In this document: piece by piece, positions 43,461-52,526 of the stretch
Numbering within the stretch: position 1 is the stretch's first letter
Layout: every line of letters begins with the position of its first letter
Virus record (IMG/VR): IMGVR_UViG_3300011115_001056
Location: 62,001 to 126,000 of that record
Source: a virus
DNA: 64,000 nt
Direction: 5' to 3' (one strand)
Made by a program: the position numbers and the translations under genes
The notes under the pieces: generated by a model
Database searches by the model: none
What the model was told of the DNA's origin: nothing
Seen by the model: the letters and a program-made list of their open reading frames with translations, nothing else

Positions 43461-45374
43461 ATGGCGGGTAAACTATCAATTCTATCAAATATCAATAAGT
43501 TTATCAAAGCTCAGGATGAGAAGCTTTGGACAGGAACTTTAGAGGACTATCTATCTCTAGTTGTTAAAAATCCCGCTATCCATATGACTTCCCATACTAG
43601 AGTTCTCAAAATGATTGAGAGCCATGGGTTTGAGAAGGATGCTTCTGGAAAAATTGTTAAATATAATTTTTTCAAAGATGAGATCTTTGGAGTTGATTCA
43701 TCTATTGATGAGATAGTCTCCTATCTTCGTGCTGCCGCAGCAGGCAGCGAGGTAGGCAGAAGAATTCTCCTCATGTATGGTCCAACCTCCTCTGGAAAGT
43801 CTCAGCTAGCAATCATGCTTAAGAAGGGACTTGAGAAGTTCTCTCAGACTGAAGCTGGCTCCATCTATGGTCTATCAGAGTCTCCGATGAACGAAGATCC
43901 CCTTACTGCCATTCCACATGAGCTTAGAGATGAGTTCTTAAAAGAATATGGTATTAAAATTGAGGGTGAGCTTAGCCCGCTTATGTCAATAATATTAAAA
44001 GAAAAGTACGCAGGAAATTTCCTAAAATTACCAGTCAGAAGATACTTCATCTCTGAAAAAAATCGTGCTAGCATTGGAACCTTTGTGCCTTCTGATAAAA
44101 AGAGCCAAGACATTTCAGAGCTAATTGGATCAATGGACCTATCTACCGTGGGACAATACGGCTCCGAATCAGATCCAAGAGCTTACAAGTTCGATGGGGA
44201 ACTTAATGTTGCCAATAGAGGCATCATGGAGTTCATCGAAATGCTTAAGGTCGATCAAAAGTTCCTTTATGTTCTTCTCACTTTGGCACAAGAAAAGAAT
44301 ATCAAAACTCCAAGATTCCCACTTATCTACGCCGATGAATTTCTGCTTTCTCATACCAATGAGAATGAATTCCGTAAGTTCTTAGCTAAAGAGGAAATGG
44401 AAGCACTTCATGACCGTATCATTGTAGTTAAGGTTCCATACAATCTTTCCGTTAATAATGAAGTAAAGATTTACGAAAAGCTTATTGCTCAGGCCGACTT
44501 TAATGGTGTCCACGTATCTCCCCATGCCCTATACTGTGCGGCAATGTTTGCCATCCTCTCTAGACTAAAAGAGTCTGCAAATAAAAATCTTGACATAGTC
44601 ACCAAAATGAAGCTCTATAATGGAGAATCAGTTGAGGGATTTACTGGAACTGATGTAACAAATTTCATGGGAGAATATCACGACGAAGGCATGGGTGGAG
44701 TTTCTCCTCGTTATGTTATCAATAGAATTTCATCTATTCTCGCAGAAACTGGCGCAACCTGTATTACTCCTATTGATGTTATCCGCTCTATTAGAGACGG
44801 GTTTAAGTCTAACGCAAAACTAGATTCAAAAGAAGTTTCTCGCCTAGAAGATCTTCTCACCAAAGTAATTGATGAATACTCAAAGATTTCAAAGAATGAT
44901 GTGCAGAAAGCATTCTTCCTCAACTTCGAAGAGGAAGTCTCCAATCTTCTATCTAACTACCTAGAAAACGTCAATGCATTCCTTGATGGATCCAAGCTTG
45001 AAAATGATCTTGGTCAGCATGTTGAGCCAAACGAAAAGCTAATGAGAGCTATCGAAGAGAAGATCCAAGTAACCGAATCTGGCAAGCGCTCTTTCCGTCA
45101 GGAAATAAGCCGCAAGATGGCAAGATCTGGCTCTCAGAACTCTGGAGTTCCAAACTACAAGGATCACTTCAAGCTCCGTGAGGCTCTTGAGAAGCAACTC
45201 TTTGAAGAAAGACAGGACGTAATTAGACTTACCGTCAGCACCAGAATAACTGATGAGGGTGCACTAAAGAAACTCAATGTTGTCATCAATACTCTCTGTG
45301 AAAAATATGGATACACTGCAGAATCAGCTAACAAACTTCTGAGATATGTTAGCTCTGTTATGGCTAGGACCTAA
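43461..45374 (+). CDS. prkA: PrkA/YeaG-family serine protein kinase
   Basis: The 637-residue product matches PrkA (E. coli YeaG, about 644). In bacteria the family has an AAA-like N-terminal domain and a C-terminal kinase-like domain and acts in starvation, stress and sporulation. Seen: WTGTLEDYLSLVVKNP (start pattern), Walker A GPTSSGKS at 107-114, FPLIYADEFLLSHTNENEF (PrkA pattern aspartate followed by HTNE), YNGESVEGFTGTDV and DEGMGGVSPRYVINRISSIL (EGM.GIS.R signature). All key features are present, suggesting function. It shares a TAATG junction with yeaH. With yeaH and spoVR it forms the same triad seen in many bacterial chromosomes. Confidence 0.9.
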   Translation: MAGKLSILSNINKFIKAQDEKLWTGTLEDYLSLVVKNPAIHMTSHTRVLKMIESHGFEKDASGKIVKYNFFKDEIFGVDSSIDEIVSYLRAAAAGSEVGRRILLMYGPTSSGKSQLAIMLKKGLEKFSQTEAGSIYGLSESPMNEDPLTAIPHELRDEFLKEYGIKIEGELSPLMSIILKEKYAGNFLKLPVRRYFISEKNRASIGTFVPSDKKSQDISELIGSMDLSTVGQYGSESDPRAYKFDGELNVANRGIMEFIEMLKVDQKFLYVLLTLAQEKNIKTPRFPLIYADEFLLSHTNENEFRKFLAKEEMEALHDRIIVVKVPYNLSVNNEVKIYEKLIAQADFNGVHVSPHALYCAAMFAILSRLKESANKNLDIVTKMKLYNGESVEGFTGTDVTNFMGEYHDEGMGGVSPRYVINRISSILAETGATCITPIDVIRSIRDGFKSNAKLDSKEVSRLEDLLTKVIDEYSKISKNDVQKAFFLNFEEEVSNLLSNYLENVNAFLDGSKLENDLGQHVEPNEKLMRAIEEKIQVTESGKRSFRQEISRKMARSGSQNSGVPNYKDHFKLREALEKQLFEERQDVIRLTVSTRITDEGALKKLNVVINTLCEKYGYTAESANKLLRYVSSVMART

Positions 45375-46534
45375 TGAGCAGCAAGGTCAATCGAGAGTTA
45401 AGTGATATCTGGAAGCTAAGGCAGAGAGGTAAACAAGACTCAGAGAGACATAAAGAGCTCTTAAAAAAGGCTATCAAAGAGAAGGGCAAGCATATTATCT
45501 CAGAATATAATATTGTCACTTCTGATGGTAGCAAAAAGGTGCGAGTTCCCGTCAAGGTTTTGGAGCCCTACAAACTAAAGTGGGGTCCATCCAACAAGTC
45601 TGATGGGACTGGCCAGGGTCTAGATGGAAAGCCAGGCCAGAAGTACCGTATAGGCAGCGGAAAGCCACAGCAGGGCTCTGGTGGTGAAGGCGAAGGTGAA
45701 GACGGCGAAATGCTTTTCGAGTCAGAGATTACTATCGATGAACTAGTAGATCATCTAATAAGAGAATTAAATTTGCCGTGGATGGAACCAAAGTCTACTT
45801 CTGAAATAGAAGTAGATAATGAGGAGTTAGTCTCTAGGGAGAAGAAAGGTATTTGGCCAAATGTAGATATGAGAAGAACCGTCATTCAGAATCTCAAGCG
45901 TAATGCCTCAAAGGGAGTACCTTACGTTGGAGACTTTAAGAAGGATGATCTTATTTATAAAAATTGGGAAGAGCAAAAGGAATATGAGTCCCAAGCCGTA
46001 GTCTACCTGATGATGGACATAAGTGGATCCATGACCAAGGAGAGACAAAAGCTAGCAAAGACCTTTTATTTCTGGATGATTCAATTTATCAAAAGAAGAT
46101 ATAAGAGAATTAAAATTCATTGCATTGCTCATGATACAAAAGCAGTATTTGTTTCTGAGGAAGAGTTTTTTAAGACATCCGATGCAGGAGGAACTCTTTG
46201 CAGCTCTGCCTTTGAAGCTGCATATAATCATATGTCTGTAAACTACGATCCTGCTAGCTGGAATATCTATGCTATGGAATTTTCAGATGGAGATAACTGG
46301 GGTGATGATAATAATAAGTGTCTAGAGATAATTAAGAAAATGGTGCCTATATGTAGCATGATTGGCTATGGAGAAGTAGCAGAAGAAGAGCAGCCATCTT
46401 GGTCAACACGAGGACTTCTTTCGTCTTTAATTAAAAATGCTTTTATAAAAGAACCAAAGGTAATTACTGTAGACGTTAGAAATGATGATGCAGTATTTCC
46501 TGCCCTTCAAACTTTCTTTGGGGTGAAAAAATGA
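45374..46534 (+). CDS. yeaH: YeaH/YhbH-family (DUF444) von Willebrand A protein
   Basis: The 386-residue product matches the YeaH/YhbH family, which is encoded beside PrkA in bacteria. Seen: a charged N-terminus, a Gly-rich linker (GSGKPQQGSGGEGEGEDGE) as in YeaH, and a vWA domain with MIDAS motif D215-x-S-x-S in MMDISGSMTKER, SDAGGT (MIDAS Thr) and EFSDGDNWGDDN. Length is near the family norm (about 390-430). ATGA overlap with spoVR indicates coupled translation. Its biochemical role in bacteria is poorly defined; it probably acts with PrkA. Confidence 0.9.
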   Translation: MSSKVNRELSDIWKLRQRGKQDSERHKELLKKAIKEKGKHIISEYNIVTSDGSKKVRVPVKVLEPYKLKWGPSNKSDGTGQGLDGKPGQKYRIGSGKPQQGSGGEGEGEDGEMLFESEITIDELVDHLIRELNLPWMEPKSTSEIEVDNEELVSREKKGIWPNVDMRRTVIQNLKRNASKGVPYVGDFKKDDLIYKNWEEQKEYESQAVVYLMMDISGSMTKERQKLAKTFYFWMIQFIKRRYKRIKIHCIAHDTKAVFVSEEEFFKTSDAGGTLCSSAFEAAYNHMSVNYDPASWNIYAMEFSDGDNWGDDNNKCLEIIKKMVPICSMIGYGEVAEEEQPSWSTRGLLSSLIKNAFIKEPKVITVDVRNDDAVFPALQTFFGVKK

Positions 46535-47916
46535 GCAATTTAAATGACAGATTAAAAGAATTTGAAAGTATGGCAGATGATATTGGATTGACCCATTTTC
46601 CAATTGAATTTGAAATAGTTCCTCAAGATGTAATGCTAGAGGTCGTTACCTATGCGCTTCCTGCTAGGGCACGGCACTGGGTATACGGACAATCATATGA
46701 TTATCAGAAGTATTCTGATGGTATGGGTTACTCCAAAATCTACGAAGTCATTATGAATAATGATCCTTCCTACGCATTTATGCTGGATTCAAATTCTGAC
46801 ACCATCAATACGATGGTAATGGCACACTGTTTTGGTCATAGTCATTGCTTTAAGAATAACTATCTTTTTCAAAATACTGACAGAAAGATGGTTTATAATG
46901 CAGCAGAGAGGGCACAAAGAATAACAGAATATGTTCAAAGGTATGGTATAGATAAAGTAGAACATACAATGAATATAGCTTTTGCCATAGATAAGCATAT
47001 TGACTGGTCAAAGGGCGAAAATAGAATGGTCTATGGAAAGCCTAAGAAGATTATAAAAGAAGTAAAAAAGAAAGAATTTGATGATCTTTTAAATCCAAAG
47101 AAGCCTTCAAAGATTGAGATTATTCAAAATGGAAGCTTTCCTCCTCACCCAGAAAGTGATCTGCTTTGGTTTCTTTCTTCCTATGGTAACTTAGAGGATT
47201 GGCAGAAGGATATTTTTGAAATTATTCGTCAGGAGAGCTTTTATTTTTATCCTCAATATTCCACAAAGATTCTCAATGAAGGAATCGCCTCTGTTATTCA
47301 TGCAGAATTCATGTCAAAGCTTGATTCTCTTTCTCCAGAAGAACATCTTGATTTCTGTAGAGTTCATGAGAGAGTAGTTCAGCCTGGCGGAAATCCATTA
47401 AATATTAATCCTTACTTTTTAGGATTTACTATCCTTCAGGACATAAGGAAGCGGTGGGATAATTATAAGTCTGCAGGAGAGTCTAGTATATCTGGTATGG
47501 AGAAGATGCTTGAGGTCGTATCTCAAGAAGATGATATTTCACTAATCAAAAATTATCTAACCAAAGAGCTTGTAGAAGAGATGAATCTTTTTGCATATAA
47601 GTCTGATAAAGATAAAACTGGAGATACCATCATTACTATCAAAAGTAGAAATCCAGATGATGTAGCAGAAAGTTTGACCAAAGATATGCATAATTATCGA
47701 TCACCAGTCATCACAATAGAGAAGGCATCTTCAAATGGGATGGAGCTAATTCATCATCCTCATAATGCAAAGACTCTTGATGAAAGAAATCTTTCAAAAG
47801 TTATGGAATATATTTATGAGCTTTGGGGCTCTCCAATTGATATGCAAACCATTGATGATCAAGGAGAAGTTGTTCACCATACCTACGACGAGGATGGATT
47901 CTCTGGCGAAGAATAA
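46531..47916 (+). CDS. spoVR: SpoVR-family protein (YcgB-like)
   Basis: The 461-residue product matches SpoVR/YcgB (about 470-510), a protein needed for the spore cortex in Bacillus and co-conserved with PrkA and YeaH. Seen: FPIEFEIVPQDVMLE, ARHWVYGQSYDYQKY, YEVIMNNDPSYAFML and HCFGHSHCFKNNYLF from H99, all SpoVR hallmarks, and ERYG-like VQRYGIDKVEHTMNIAFAID. The C-terminus (NLSKVMEYIYELWGSPIDM) also fits the family. Molecular function is unknown in any organism; the His/Cys cluster suggests metal binding. Confidence 0.9.
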   Translation: MSNLNDRLKEFESMADDIGLTHFPIEFEIVPQDVMLEVVTYALPARARHWVYGQSYDYQKYSDGMGYSKIYEVIMNNDPSYAFMLDSNSDTINTMVMAHCFGHSHCFKNNYLFQNTDRKMVYNAAERAQRITEYVQRYGIDKVEHTMNIAFAIDKHIDWSKGENRMVYGKPKKIIKEVKKKEFDDLLNPKKPSKIEIIQNGSFPPHPESDLLWFLSSYGNLEDWQKDIFEIIRQESFYFYPQYSTKILNEGIASVIHAEFMSKLDSLSPEEHLDFCRVHERVVQPGGNPLNINPYFLGFTILQDIRKRWDNYKSAGESSISGMEKMLEVVSQEDDISLIKNYLTKELVEEMNLFAYKSDKDKTGDTIITIKSRNPDDVAESLTKDMHNYRSPVITIEKASSNGMELIHHPHNAKTLDERNLSKVMEYIYELWGSPIDMQTIDDQGEVVHHTYDEDGFSGEE

Positions 47917-48331: not shown

Positions 48332-48371
48332 ATGACCTGCTAATTGAAACATGCGAAACACAGGATATAAA

Positions 48372-50783
48372 ATGACAAAGTTTTTAGATATCGAGATTGA
48401 TCTGTCCAGAGACAGTCTGTTTGATGAGCTAGGACTGAAAAGACTCAAAGAATCCTATATGAAGGATGAAGAGTCTTCTCCACAGGAAAGATTTGCTTTT
48501 GTATCCAAATCCTTTGGGACAAATCTTGAGCACTCTCAAAGACTTTACGATTATTCCAGCAAACATTGGCTAAGTTATTCCACGCCAATTCTTTCTTTTG
48601 GTCGTACCAAATATGGACTGCCCATTTCCTGTTTTCTATCATGGATCCCAGATACGGCAAAGGGCCTAGTGGATACTCTATCTGAAACTAATTGGCTATC
48701 CATGCTAGGTGGTGGAGTAGGACTTGGATTTGGAATTCGCTCTGCCGGAGATAAATCTACTGGTGTTATGCCACATCTTAAAACCTATGATGCATCTTCT
48801 TTGGCATACAGACAGGGGAACTGTTACCTTCCCGGCACAGAAATTCTAACATCTTCTGGTTGGAAGGCGATGGAGCTATTACAGCAAGATGATGTTGTTG
48901 CGGTTATTGATGACGACGGAAGTATTTCGTTTGAAATGCCACTAGAGATAGTAGCCGAAAAATATAATGGAAATATCATAAACTTTACAAATAAAACCCG
49001 AGGAATAGATATTTCTGTTACAGAAGATCACTCAATGGTTATTGAAAGGAAGATTAAATCTGGATGGTCCAAAAGACTAGAAAAAGTTCGTGCTTCAGAA
49101 CTCAAATTTCATAATGAAGTCAGGTTTTGGACTGCAGCAAAGCCAGCAAATTCTGCCTCTAAACTAGATTCACTCACTCGTCTAAAAATTGCAGTTCAGG
49201 CTGATGCTCATATTAGGGCTGATGGTGTGTGTGAATTTCACCTAAAGAAAGAGCGAAAGATTTCAAGGATAAATAAAATCCTTTCAGATTTGAATCTAGA
49301 GACATGGCAAAGCGATCATAAGGATGGCACCGTATCTGTATATGCAAAGGGTATGAGTTTCGATGGACTAAAGAGTTTATCTTGGATTAATTTATCAAAA
49401 GTTACTCCATCAGAAGCTGCAGCAATGCTAGAAGAGATTGCAGAATGGGACGCAACTAGAAACAGAGGGCACAGCTTCATATACTTCAGCACCATAAGAG
49501 AGAATGCATCCGTAGTTCAATCTCTGGCCGTAATTGCTGGTCGCCCAAGTCGTATCTGCAATAGGAAGAGACAAGCTCCTCGCTTAAATATGCATTCGGT
49601 ATTTGTTGGAAATAAAAATTATTTTCTTCTCGAAAAGCTTAAGAGAGAAAATATTCAATATAACGGAATGGTTCATTGTTGTGTCGTTAGAACTGGAAAG
49701 ATTGTCGTCAGGGCTGGAGAGACACCAATTGTTTGCGGCAATACTCGTCGCGGATCTTATGCTGCATATCTAGATATTTCTCATCCAGATCTAATGATGT
49801 TCTTGGACATGAGAAAGCCCACTGGCGATCAGAACATGCGCTGCCGCAATCTTCATCAGGGTATCAATATCACTGATGATTTTATGAGAATTATTGAAAA
49901 GTGTATGCTTGATCCTGCTGCAGATGATAAGTGGGAATTAAAAGAACCCCACAATGGAGTAGTAAAAGAAGTAGTGTCTGCTAAGGAACTTTGGCAAAAG
50001 ATTTTGGAACTTAGAGTTCAAACTGGAGAACCATATCTTCATTTTATTGATACCTCAAATAAATTTATGCCTGAACACTTAAAGAAACTGGGACTAAAAA
50101 TTAGACAGTCAAACCTCTGCTCTGAAATTCTTCTTCCTACGTCAGAAGAAAGAACTGCAGTCTGTTGCCTTTCCTCTCTAAACTTAGAGAGATTTGATGA
50201 ATGGAAGGATGAGCCACTATTCCTTCGTGACGTAGCAGAAATGTTAGATAATGTATTGAATTACTTTATTAAAAATGCTCCTGATGAAGTAAGTAGGGCA
50301 AAATTTTCTGCTATGCGAGAAAGATCGATTGGTGTTGGAGCATTAGGATTCCATGCCTATCTGCAGCAGAATAAGTTACCGTTTGAGAGTGCTCTTGCTA
50401 AGTCAGCAAATATCAGAATGTTTAAGCACATCAGAACAGGACTTAACGAGGCTAATATTGAACTTGCAAAAGAAAGAGGTGAAGCTCCAGACGCAATAGG
50501 CACAGGGATGAGATTCAGCCACCTTATGGCGGTTGCGCCAAACGCCTGTGTTGTTGGAGAAACAAAGATAATTATGTCAGACGGAACAACCAAATCGATA
50601 GAGGATATCGGAACGTCTCTCGATATTGACATGAGGTCATTTGACTATCTCACAATAAATACTGATGATGGATCAACAATGGAACTGCACCTCGGGCAAA
50701 TGCTATTGATTGAAAGAGATGGCAAGAAAATATCAATAATAGCTGCAGAATTAATAGAGAATGATGATATTTTAGAGACTTGA
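48372..50783 (+). CDS. nrdA: Ribonucleotide reductase alpha (class I), N-terminal part, with one intein and the start of a second, split intein
   Basis: This frame encodes the first two thirds of class I NrdA, the catalytic subunit that makes deoxynucleotides. Extein parts: residues before 48822 (LPISCFLSW with the first active Cys; LGGGVGLGFGIRSAGDKSTG), then 49743-50546 (TRRGSYAAYLDISHPDL; QSNLCSEILLPTSEE with the N-x-C-x-E radical-site triad; CCLSSLNL with the second redox Cys). A complete intein sits between AYRQGN and TRRGSY. A second intein starts at C (50547) after LMAVAPNA, and the frame ends inside it at 50783. The rest of NrdA is in the gene at 52161. The ATG at 48372 has AGGA six bases upstream; an ATG at 48351 lacks one. 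Confidence 0.92.
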   Translation: MTKFLDIEIDLSRDSLFDELGLKRLKESYMKDEESSPQERFAFVSKSFGTNLEHSQRLYDYSSKHWLSYSTPILSFGRTKYGLPISCFLSWIPDTAKGLVDTLSETNWLSMLGGGVGLGFGIRSAGDKSTGVMPHLKTYDASSLAYRQGNCYLPGTEILTSSGWKAMELLQQDDVVAVIDDDGSISFEMPLEIVAEKYNGNIINFTNKTRGIDISVTEDHSMVIERKIKSGWSKRLEKVRASELKFHNEVRFWTAAKPANSASKLDSLTRLKIAVQADAHIRADGVCEFHLKKERKISRINKILSDLNLETWQSDHKDGTVSVYAKGMSFDGLKSLSWINLSKVTPSEAAAMLEEIAEWDATRNRGHSFIYFSTIRENASVVQSLAVIAGRPSRICNRKRQAPRLNMHSVFVGNKNYFLLEKLKRENIQYNGMVHCCVVRTGKIVVRAGETPIVCGNTRRGSYAAYLDISHPDLMMFLDMRKPTGDQNMRCRNLHQGINITDDFMRIIEKCMLDPAADDKWELKEPHNGVVKEVVSAKELWQKILELRVQTGEPYLHFIDTSNKFMPEHLKKLGLKIRQSNLCSEILLPTSEERTAVCCLSSLNLERFDEWKDEPLFLRDVAEMLDNVLNYFIKNAPDEVSRAKFSAMRERSIGVGALGFHAYLQQNKLPFESALAKSANIRMFKHIRTGLNEANIELAKERGEAPDAIGTGMRFSHLMAVAPNACVVGETKIIMSDGTTKSIEDIGTSLDIDMRSFDYLTINTDDGSTMELHLGQMLLIERDGKKISIIAAELIENDDILET
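48822..49742 (+). other. Contiguous intein in NrdA with degenerate LAGLIDADG-type endonuclease
   Basis: The intein spans 307 codons, from Cys1 (CYLPGTEILTSSGWKAME) to the final Asn in PIVCGN, followed by Thr as +1 residue. Block B has VTEDHSMVIE with the T-x-x-H. The middle part holds two LAGLIDADG-like repeats, LKIAVQADAHIRADG and MLEEIAEWDAT, with a catalytic-type Asp in each but without the usual Gly. The last block F/G region is YNGMVHCCVV to VRAGETPIV. The penultimate residue is Gly rather than the common His, as in some phage RNR inteins. After splicing NrdA would read AYRQGN-TRRGSY, a conserved class I RNR stretch. Splicing is likely; endonuclease activity is uncertain. Confidence 0.88.
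50547..50780 (+). other. N-terminal half of a split intein in NrdA
   Basis: A 78-residue intein N-fragment that starts at Cys1 in CVVGETKIIMSDGTTKSIED (block A) right after LMAVAPNA of the extein. It ends at a stop codon following ELIENDDILET. Its last part (LLIERDGKKISII, then AELIENDDI) resembles an intein N4-like segment. The conserved RNR sequence continues in the gene at 52527 (SSSILMGNTSPS), which proves the split at the level of sequence. See the IntC entry for the unusual split position. Confidence 0.85.
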
Positions 50784-50790
50784 TAGCGGC

Positions 50791-50825
50791 GGCTCCTACT
50801 AATACAAAAAATAAAGGTAGGAGCC
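50791..50825 (+). promoter_or_regulatory. Hairpin that buries the ribosome binding site of the homing endonuclease
   Basis: GGCTCCTAC (50791-50799) and GTAGGAGCC (50817-50825) form a perfect 9-bp stem with a 17-base loop. The right arm contains AGGAG (50819-50823), the only good ribosome binding site for the ATG at 50834. Folding would hide it. Free-standing homing endonuclease genes of T4-like phages are known to be controlled by similar structures that repress early translation. Confidence 0.7.
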
Positions 50826-50833
50826 ACGGCAGT

Positions 50834-52171
50834 ATGAAGAATAATTTAAATAAAAAAATAGATAAAATAAAGTCTTATAACCTTTTTTCCGATCTTGAAA
50901 TACAGGAGCTTTTAAAATTAAAGTCAACAGAGATTTTAAAAATCTTAAAATGGAAAGAATGTGCAAAATTTGCCGGTATTGATGTAAAAATATCAGATTA
51001 CATGAATCATCCAGATTGGAATACCATAACATCAATGTATGATTTTAATTATTACAAAATAAAATATTCAAGTTATGACTATCATAAAATATATAATATT
51101 TCAAAATCAAAAATAATAAAAAAGAGAGGATCTATGTATGATCCTGAAAATATAGCAAAAAAGAAAAATATCTCAATAGAAGAGGCAACTCTTCTTTCGG
51201 AGAGAAGAAAGGATTCTACAAAAATAACTAAAGAAAATTTGATAAAAAAATATGGACCTGAAGTTGGCATTATTAAATATCAAGATTTTGTAAATAAATC
51301 GATGTCAACCATTGATAATTATAAAAAAAGATATGGTAACGACTGGAAAGAGAGGTGGGGTTATTTTTTAAGCACAAGAGACTCCTCAAGCTTGAGTGCC
51401 TGCATTTCAAAGTATGGAGATGATGGTGAGAGAATTTTTGCAGAAAGAGTTCTTAAATTTAAAAAATCATCCGATATAAATTACTATATGGAAAAATATG
51501 GTGATGACGAAGGGCTTAAGATCTTTGAAAAAATAAACTCAATGAAGGCAGAGGGCGCAATCAGATCTTGGTCTTTTGAAGAGTTTAAAAAAAAGAATTA
51601 TAATAATTCATCAGAAGAAGAGTTAAGGGAAATTTTTAATTTAAAATTAAAAAAAAGAAGCACAAAGACAATAGAATATTTTCTTCAAAAAGGCTTCTCT
51701 CTAGATGATTCAAAAGAATTAAGGCTTAAGTCAATAGAGAAATTATATAGAAGCTCTGAGAAAAATTCACCAGTATCAAAAGAATCAATTAGGCTTTTTT
51801 CAGCACTGCAATCTGAGTTAAATAGAGTGTGTAAGTTTGGAACAAAAAAAGAAGAGTTATCATTAAGATATGATGATAGGCTATATTTTTTTGATTTTTT
51901 TGATGAAAAAACAAATACAATAATAGAATATAACGGATCTATTTTTCATGCTCCAGAAAAACTATCTATATCAGAAAGAGAGATGTGGAAGAGTAAGTAT
52001 GGTTTAGGTTGGCACGATGTTAACAAGAAGGACAATCAAAAACTTGATGCGGCCAAATCGGCTGGGTACAATATTATGGTAGTCTGGGATTATGAAGTAA
52101 GGTCCAAGACAAAATTAAAAGAAAAGATAAAAGAGCTTGCAACTACCTTAGGAAGAACAAATGAAAGTTAG
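50834..52171 (+). CDS. Free-standing homing endonuclease, Vsr/EDxHD-like, inside split nrdA
   Basis: The 445-residue product from ATG 50834 lies between the two halves of nrdA. The C-terminal catalytic region has RYDDRLYFFDFFDEKTN, IIEYNGSIFHAP and VWDYEV, the E/D-x-H-D arrangement of Vsr-like homing endonucleases such as the family of I-Bth0305I. The middle contains repeated KYG-type motifs (KKYGPEVG, KRYGNDW, SKYGDDG, EKYGDDEG) as found in the DNA-binding part of phage homing endonucleases. The gene is much more AT-rich than nrdA, consistent with a mobile element. It overlaps the downstream nrdA fragment by 11 bases. A TTG frame extension upstream (50780) is not preferred because the hairpin-embedded AGGAG fits the ATG. 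Confidence 0.82.
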   Translation: MKNNLNKKIDKIKSYNLFSDLEIQELLKLKSTEILKILKWKECAKFAGIDVKISDYMNHPDWNTITSMYDFNYYKIKYSSYDYHKIYNISKSKIIKKRGSMYDPENIAKKKNISIEEATLLSERRKDSTKITKENLIKKYGPEVGIIKYQDFVNKSMSTIDNYKKRYGNDWKERWGYFLSTRDSSSLSACISKYGDDGERIFAERVLKFKKSSDINYYMEKYGDDEGLKIFEKINSMKAEGAIRSWSFEEFKKKNYNNSSEEELREIFNLKLKKRSTKTIEYFLQKGFSLDDSKELRLKSIEKLYRSSEKNSPVSKESIRLFSALQSELNRVCKFGTKKEELSLRYDDRLYFFDFFDEKTNTIIEYNGSIFHAPEKLSISEREMWKSKYGLGWHDVNKKDNQKLDAAKSAGYNIMVVWDYEVRSKTKLKEKIKELATTLGRTNES

Positions 52172-52526
52172 AAGTGTGAAATTGAAACAACCTCAGTGGT
52201 TTGAATCAGAAAGTAATGTTGAGGTAAAAACATCATCTGGAACTGCAAAAGTAAATAAACTATATTTCAATGGTTATTCAGAAGTATTAGATCTTATTAT
52301 GAAAAAAGAAGATCTAATTCATACTGCAAGATGCACTGCAAACCACAAATTCCTAACAATAAATCATGGGTGGCTCAAGATCATTGAGCTGATTCCAGGA
52401 ATGGAACTTACGGATGGCTGGTATGTAGAATCTGTACTTGCTACCAGAGAAATTATGCCAACCTTTGATATAGAGGTCCCAATAACACACGATTATGTTC
52501 TTGAAAACGGTGTGGTGACACATAAT
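52161..52526 (+). other. C-terminal half of the split intein, unusually long, with its own B-block
   Basis: The 122-residue fragment contains VEVKTSSGTAKVNKL, a B-block-like CTANHKFLTINHGW (T-x-x-H), ELIPGMELTDGW (N4-like), block F TFDIEVPITHDYVLENG and block G VVTHN, with Ser as +1 residue. Normal split-intein C-fragments are about 35-50 residues and lack block B. Here block B sits on the C-fragment, so the split lies between blocks A and B, or part of the HINT fold is duplicated. Confidence 0.8.

What the first reader, a model, noticed from the sequence alone, without database searches (positions are those of the whole stretch)
50547..52526. NrdA intein split at an unusual place, with a homing endonuclease gene between the halves
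The conserved RNR stretch APNA-SSSILMGN is interrupted by a 78-residue intein N-fragment, a free-standing Vsr-like endonuclease gene and a 122-residue C-fragment. The C-fragment carries a B-block-like CTANHKFL (T-x-x-H) and an N4-like segment in addition to F and G, whereas known split inteins usually keep block B in the N-half. The N-fragment also ends in an N4-like ELIENDDI. Either the split is between blocks A and B (atypical split), or part of the HINT fold is duplicated on both halves. Such an arrangement could be a new type of trans-splicing pair.
Basis: partly seen in the sequence, partly recalled or inferred. Interest (0 to 1): 0.85.

Follow-up and report, generated by a model that had tools for sequence, protein, structure and literature searches.

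The report
Split intein with overlapping halves
A phage ribonucleotide reductase gene is cut in two by a self-splicing protein element whose halves overlap: the first half still carries a worn but conserved second copy of a region that the second half also carries, which looks like a step in how such elements move their breakpoint.

Summary
NrdA (APNA^SSS) is interrupted by a 78-aa intein N-fragment, a free-standing endonuclease gene and a 122-aa C-fragment. A second phage contig (L011) has the same pair (55% and 74% identical) with no endonuclease, only a 24-bp spacer, so the split is a conserved, selected trait and not a sequencing error. The catalytic HINT is split between blocks A and B: N residues 1-33, plus C residues 11-122 with TANH, F, G and HN^S. 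In addition, N residues 34-76 are a second, degenerate B/N4 copy (HxxQ in place of TxxH). It comes from a canonical N-fragment and is under purifying selection. The C-fragment also begins with a probable extra copy of the canonical C-intein first strand. AlphaFold2 folds everything confidently (pLDDT 93). The best structural match is a Campylobacter phage contiguous intein at the same site (rmsd 3.8 Å). Most likely it is a functional trans-splicing intein, born by recombination between split and contiguous alleles, with the relic tail and head serving as a docking interface. Splicing and docking are inferred, not shown. New variant of a known kind.

The parts
48351..50546 (+). NrdA N-extein ORF, with a separate contiguous intein at 48822-49742 (RQGN^C...CGN^TRRG)
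   Evidence: PRK09102 / Ribonuc_red_lgC matches to both sides; translation
50547..50645 (+). N-fragment residues 1-33: block A plus the SID element; catalytic Cys1
   Evidence: TIGR01445 match to residues 1-25; aligns with residues 1-33 of inteins in the same NrdA stretch
50646..50780 (+). N-fragment residues 34-78: extra degenerate B/N4 copy (HLGQ in place of TxxH) ending like canonical N-fragments (ELIENDDIL)
   Evidence: Ungapped homology to canonical N-fragment B-N4 of L099, z 11.9 and 14.7; conserved in L011 under purifying selection, Fisher p 1.6e-6
50791..50825 (+). RNA hairpin (50791-50800 with 50816-50825) whose 3' arm contains AGGAG (50819-50823), the likely ribosome-binding site of the endonuclease gene
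   Evidence: Fold -24.9 kcal/mol, z -5.2, 0 of 200 shuffles as good
50834..52171 (+). Free-standing homing endonuclease gene, 445 aa; N-terminal repeats like endonucleases between split NrdA inteins, C-terminal EDxHD (Vsr-like) type nuclease domain
   Evidence: blastp to L099 endonuclease E 1e-6 and L095 endonuclease 2e-6, to CP21 endonuclease 8e-14; phrog_22677 1e-18; 3r3p E 0.14
52161..52190 (+). C-fragment residues 1-10, MKVRSVKLKQ: probable extra copy of the canonical C-intein first strand
   Evidence: Only 4 of 883 phage gene starts score as high against canonical C-intein starts (2 of 883 for L011); strand in both AF2 models
52191..52412 (+). C-fragment residues 11-84: PQW segment, N2, block B (T59-A-N-H62) and N4 of the functional HINT
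   Evidence: Alignment A5; z 10-18 to inteins in the same NrdA stretch
52413..52526 (+). C-fragment residues 85-122: blocks F and G, ending H121-N122
   Evidence: TIGR01443 above cut-off; z 11-15 to canonical C-inteins L099, L105 and L095
52527..53066 (+). NrdA C-extein (SSSILMGN...; LYYC and C-terminal NECLACEG)
   Evidence: Ribonuc_red_lgC 1.2e-28

Best explanation
This is a naturally split class 1 intein in phage NrdA whose catalytic HINT domain is assembled from N-fragment residues 1-33 (block A) and C-fragment residues 11-122 (N2, B, N4, F, G); it joins the two NrdA halves by trans-splicing. It arose when a canonically split allele (full N-fragment, stop, ATG, C-intein first strand) recombined with a contiguous allele of the same NrdA-site intein. 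The C-fragment thereby gained its own N2-B-N4. The N-fragment's now redundant PQW-N2 segment was then lost and its B block lost the catalytic Thr and His. The retained N tail (residues 34-76, charge -7 in both phages) and the basic C head (residues 1-10, charge +4 in both) are the relics of the old canonical interface. Most likely they still pair as a docking module that brings the fragments together. The endonuclease gene sits in the spacer between the halves and probably moves the cassette into spacer-only alleles such as L011. Shown: anatomy, homology, conservation, selection. Predicted by AF2: the complete HINT plus a folded tail and head. Inferred: splicing, docking, the recombination history.
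For: A second phage has the same pair without the endonuclease. Alignment puts the break between residue ~33 and PQW of contiguous relatives and leaves the tail and head as extras. The tail is homologous to canonical B-N4 end to end, and only the ~37-aa PQW-N2 stretch is missing from N. The tail is not detectably similar to the C-fragment's own B-N4 (scores 22 and 17), which is closer to other sublineages, so two alleles contributed. Purifying selection: tail p 1.6e-6, C p 5e-16. Charge complementarity is conserved. Both presumed parent kinds occur at this site within Campylobacter phages: contiguous in CP220 and CC_R7, canonical split with endonuclease gene in CP21 and WX1. AF2 full model pLDDT 93.2; best BFVD match is the contiguous same-site intein of phage F356, E 3.8e-10, rmsd 3.8 over 218 columns, which requires block A and the C-fragment in one HINT. 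Without the C-fragment body, block A falls to pLDDT ~70 while the tail stays at 79-88 and the head still forms a strand. Engineered halves with sequence overlap do cross-splice (PMC7090010). Electrostatic capture between the N2 lobe of the N-intein and the C-intein is the known canonical mechanism (PMC11923092).
Against: Only two loci are known. Model coordinates could not be inspected, so tail-head pairing rests on DSSP strands and pLDDT. The AF2 construct used a read-through of L011 with a 9-residue linker (stops read as Gly), which could force the hairpin. The PDB fold matches have high rmsd (mostly 14-17 Å), which I attribute to Foldseek gap placement but could not verify. The head's homology is short and only modestly significant. 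No intermediate with a full canonical N-fragment plus an extended C-fragment was found. No splicing data exist.
Confidence: 0.6

Rival explanations
1. Natural caging: the N tail, a copy of the region that the partner supplies, packs on block A in the free N-fragment and keeps it inactive and soluble until the C-fragment displaces it, as in engineered caged split inteins.
For: The N-fragment carries a piece homologous to part of its complement, the design principle of intein zymogens (PMC11766414; PMC11923092). The tail has lost the catalytic TxxH but keeps its fold residues under selection.
Against: In the model without the C-fragment body, block A has low confidence (67-75) although the tail is present. 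The tail lacks the N2 strand segment that block A normally packs against.
Confidence: 0.15
2. A plain atypically split intein: the N tail and C head are vestiges with no function beyond tolerated folding.
For: Minimal atypical split inteins work with N-fragments of 15-25 aa (PMC11923092; PMC10189870), so residues 34-78 are not needed in principle.
Against: The tail is conserved as well as block A (57% vs 56% identity) with a strong excess of synonymous change, pN 0.25 vs pS 0.79, and is predicted folded at pLDDT ~92.
Confidence: 0.17
3. It functions as a canonical split intein: the N tail is the working B/N4, and the B/N4 of the C-fragment is the redundant copy.
For: The N-fragment ends exactly like canonical N-fragments.
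Against: The N copy has HLGQ/HIGQ in place of TxxH and lacks PQW-N2, while the C copy has TANH and all other blocks.
Confidence: 0.04
4. The two NrdA halves work without splicing, as in the genes-in-pieces NrdA of phage Aeh1, or the locus is decaying.
For: An unspliced split NrdA is functional in Aeh1 (described in PMC3653736).
Against: All class 1 splicing residues are intact in both phages (Cys1, TxxH, HN, Ser+1), and both fragments are under purifying selection.
Confidence: 0.04

Closest known systems
Fractured genes: canonical split inteins with free-standing homing endonucleases (gp41-1, NrdJ-1, NrdA-2, IMPDH-1; named from memory, the 2009 paper is not held)
   Same: Phage metabolic gene split by an intein with an endonuclease gene between the halves. 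Canonical members found here in the same NrdA stretch: L099, L095, CP21, WX1, Klebsiella KP13-7 (insertion point within about one residue).
   Different: Those N-fragments (105-120 aa in the examples read) carry A-N2-B-N4 and the C-fragments (~35 aa) only F-G. Here N2-B-N4 is in the C-fragment and a dead B-N4 remains in N.
Atypically split inteins (AceL-TerL, GOS-TerL, VidaL, PolB16 OarG)
   Same: Break between blocks A and B, long C-fragment with B, N4, F, G.
   Different: Known N-fragments are 15-25 aa. Here N is 78-79 aa with a homologous extra tail, and C has an extra first strand.
Contiguous NrdA mini-inteins of Campylobacter phages (PC14, CP220, CC_R7, F356)
   Same: Same insertion region, same SID and PQW elements, same HINT.
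   Different: Single ORF of 146-153 residues, no duplication.
Engineered caged split inteins (intein zymogens)
   Same: A fragment carries a piece of its complement.
   Different: Man-made, protease-released and blocked; here natural, with no evidence of inhibition.

Membership tests
Class 1 intein | Nucleophile at position 1, TxxH in block B, HN at the end, nucleophile at +1 | tested here: met
   C1, T59-A-N-H62, H121-N122, S+1 in the window; the same positions in L011
Class 1 intein | HINT fold | tested here: met
   AF2 pLDDT 93.2; all leading PDB matches are inteins, best BFVD match rmsd 3.8; prediction only
Class 1 intein | Splicing activity | not testable with these tools
   Needs a bench assay
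[quoted passage not shown]
   Functional B/N4 in the C-fragment, C-fragment 122 aa
Atypically split intein | Break between blocks A and B, long C-fragment | tested here: met
   Alignment A5, residue ~33 | PQW
Atypically split intein | Short N-fragment (15-25 aa) with nothing beyond block A | tested here: not met
   78-79 aa with a B/N4 copy
Fractured-gene arrangement | Free-standing homing endonuclease gene between the split intein halves | tested here: met
   Window 50834-52171; related endonuclease genes between canonical split inteins in the same NrdA stretch; absent in L011
EDxHD (Vsr-like) homing endonuclease | Recognisable EDxHD nuclease domain | tested here: inconclusive
   3r3p E 0.14; shared D..IIEYxG..H..D motif with the L099 endonuclease
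Caged split intein | Appended complement piece inhibits splicing | not testable with these tools
   Sequence arrangement similar; inhibition unknown

The most novel reading that the evidence does not exclude
A naturally overlapping split intein in which the relic canonical interface (N tail and C head) has become a dedicated docking or caging module, and which records how a canonical split site is converted to an atypical one by recombination between split and contiguous alleles.
Probability: 0.4. Interest if true: 0.78.

Novelty: new variant of a known kind. Interest (0 to 1): 0.62.

Why it matters
The literature read here describes canonical and atypical split inteins but gives no route from one to the other. 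This pair looks like that route caught midway, and it makes a specific prediction: intermediates with a full N-fragment plus an extended C-fragment. If the tail and head dock, the pair would combine an atypical split with the fast electrostatic capture of canonical ones, a property sought in protein ligation tools; it would also be a natural counterpart of engineered caged inteins.

Tried and rejected
Sequencing error or frameshift: rejected, because a second contig has the same break between the halves and both fragments are under selection. One frame joined by read-through: N and C are in the same frame in both loci, but two stops separate them in L011 and a whole gene in the window; chance for two loci is about 1 in 9, so nothing was built on it. 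Tail as an unrelated domain (rof, enterotoxin-like or DUF6799 hits, E 0.05-1): rejected as chance. Tail as a recent copy of the C-fragment's own B-N4: rejected, no detectable similarity. A similar short N-fragment in Bacteroides phage BS-TP1 DNA polymerase (E 0.09): not pursued beyond annotation, no intein organisation seen. Single-sequence scans with the C-fragment and the endonuclease found nothing; scans with two DNA patterns and the N-fragment alignment found only L011. The genome-contig scan gave only a large contiguous NrdA intein, L124.

Full report
What is there. The window lies in a 132.6-kb IMG/VR virus record. NrdA is encoded in two ORFs. The first (48351-50783) carries a complete contiguous intein at RQGN^T and ends in a 78-aa intein N-fragment inserted after APNA. 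Then come TGA TAG, a strong hairpin that buries an AGGAG, a 445-aa endonuclease gene (50834-52171), and a second ORF whose ATG overlaps the endonuclease stop; it carries a 122-aa intein C-fragment followed by SSSILMGN and the rest of NrdA. Each NrdA half matches its own part of the RNR profiles.

A second, simpler copy. Of the 80 closest NrdA relatives in IMG/VR, 79 have an empty site (APNASSS) and one, L011, has the same intein pair. Its N-fragment is 55% and its C-fragment 74% identical to the window's. Between them lie only a TAA and a 24-base spacer, with no endonuclease gene. So the break is conserved and is not an assembly fault. Synonymous change is near saturation while protein change is limited: N residues 1-34 Fisher p 4e-4, residues 35-76 p 1.6e-6, C-fragment p 5e-16.

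Relatives in the same NrdA stretch. Inteins in this stretch (insertion points vary by about one residue) occur as contiguous mini-inteins (Campylobacter phages PC14, CP220, CC_R7), as canonical splits with an endonuclease gene (L099, L095, CP21, WX1, Klebsiella KP13-7), as a canonical split without one (L105), and as a large contiguous intein (L124). This allows precise placement. In alignment A5, N residues 1-33 match the first 33 residues of these inteins, and the C-fragment from PQW (residue 11) to HN matches all the rest. The HINT is therefore split between blocks A and B, as in atypically split inteins.

The extra pieces. N residues 34-76 do not align to the next part of the relatives. 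They align to the B-N4 stretch of canonical N-fragments, including their C-terminal ending, so that exactly one ~37-aa PQW-N2 stretch is missing from N. The match to L099 is 45 residues without gaps, z 14.7 for L011 and 11.9 for the window. The catalytic TxxH is replaced by HxGQ in both phages. The tail is not detectably similar to the C-fragment's own B-N4, which is closest to NrdJ-type (L093), helicase (L100) and L095 inteins. The C-fragment's first ten residues (MKVRSVKLKQ, MKVKNVKMKQ) resemble the first strand of canonical C-inteins better than about 99.5% of phage gene starts. The true counterpart of that strand is already present later, since C residues 87-122 align without gaps to the 36-aa canonical C-intein of L095. 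Charges are complementary in both phages: tail -7, head +4.

Structure. AF2 on the in-frame L011 read-through (stops read as Gly, 210 aa) with 11 sequences gave pLDDT 93.2 and pTM 0.83, with tail and head confidently folded. The best BFVD match is the contiguous same-site intein of Campylobacter phage F356: E 3.8e-10, TM 0.63 by query, rmsd 3.8 Å over 218 columns. An alignment of that length with that rmsd implies that block A sits in the C-fragment HINT as in the contiguous protein; this is inference, because coordinates are not released. PDB matches are all inteins but mostly with high rmsd, which I attribute to the 65-residue gap being placed wrongly. A second prediction of N plus linker plus C head only gave tail 79-88, head ~73 as a strand, and block A down to 67-75. 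This favours a tail-head module that does not need block A, and disfavours a cage in which block A packs on the tail. Its PDB matches are weak intein hits.

How it probably arose. A single unequal crossover joining the end of the head of a canonical-split allele to the PQW start of a contiguous allele would give two B-N4 copies, two C-intein first strands, one block A and one F-G. Deletion of PQW-N2 from N and loss of TxxH finish the present form. Contiguous and canonical-split alleles do coexist in closely related Campylobacter phages (CP220 and CC_R7 against CP21 and WX1). No intermediate was found.

Endonuclease. Its N-terminal repeats match endonucleases between canonical split inteins in the same NrdA stretch (CP21 8e-14, L099 1e-6). 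Its C-terminal domain looks EDxHD-like, while that of WX1 looks HNH-like by sequence, so catalytic domains appear to have been exchanged. L011 shows a spacer-only allele that could be its target; this is inference.

Literature. Canonical splits have N-fragments of ~100 aa and C-fragments of ~40 aa, atypical ones N-fragments of 15-25 aa (PMC11923092; PMC10189870). AceL NrdHF is a canonical split in the fractured-gene arrangement (PMC7891396). Engineered halves with overlapping sequence still cross-react (PMC7090010), and engineered cages append complement pieces (PMC11766414). No natural split intein with duplicated HINT parts turned up in the searches, but the 2009 paper that introduced fractured genes and most subscription papers are not held, so absence there is not proof.

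Verdict. The anatomy is well supported, trans-splicing is likely but untested, and docking is the favoured but unproven role of the extra segments.

Noticed in passing
48822-49742: A contiguous intein at RQGN^TRRG in the same NrdA, ending CGN without the usual penultimate His; conserved in L011.
   Followed up: partly
L011:5161-5943: L011 NrdA carries a third, contiguous intein in the active-site stretch SNL^C...HN^CSEI, absent from the window phage.
   Followed up: partly
43461-47916: The phage carries a complete PrkA - DUF444 (YeaH) - SpoVR gene row, a bacterial stress or sporulation-linked set that is unusual in a phage; DUF444-like and SpoVR-like ORFs also precede nrdA in L011.
   Followed up: partly
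50791-50825: Hairpin sequestering the endonuclease ribosome-binding site, recalling (from memory) a hairpin described for the mobE endonuclease gene in Aeh1 nrdA.
   Followed up: yes
L007:3877-5844: Vibrio phage vB_VmeM-32 UvsX is split by a canonical split intein with a SegG-like GIY-YIG endonuclease ORF between the halves; its block A is very like the window's (CVVEGTQIIMGDGTTKSVEDI).
   Followed up: partly
L127:1085-4139 and L004:2536-5232: Campylobacter phages CP21 (split plus endonuclease, apparently broken at its 3' side) and CP220 (contiguous) show presence and absence of an endonuclease gene in one and the same NrdA intein.
   Followed up: partly
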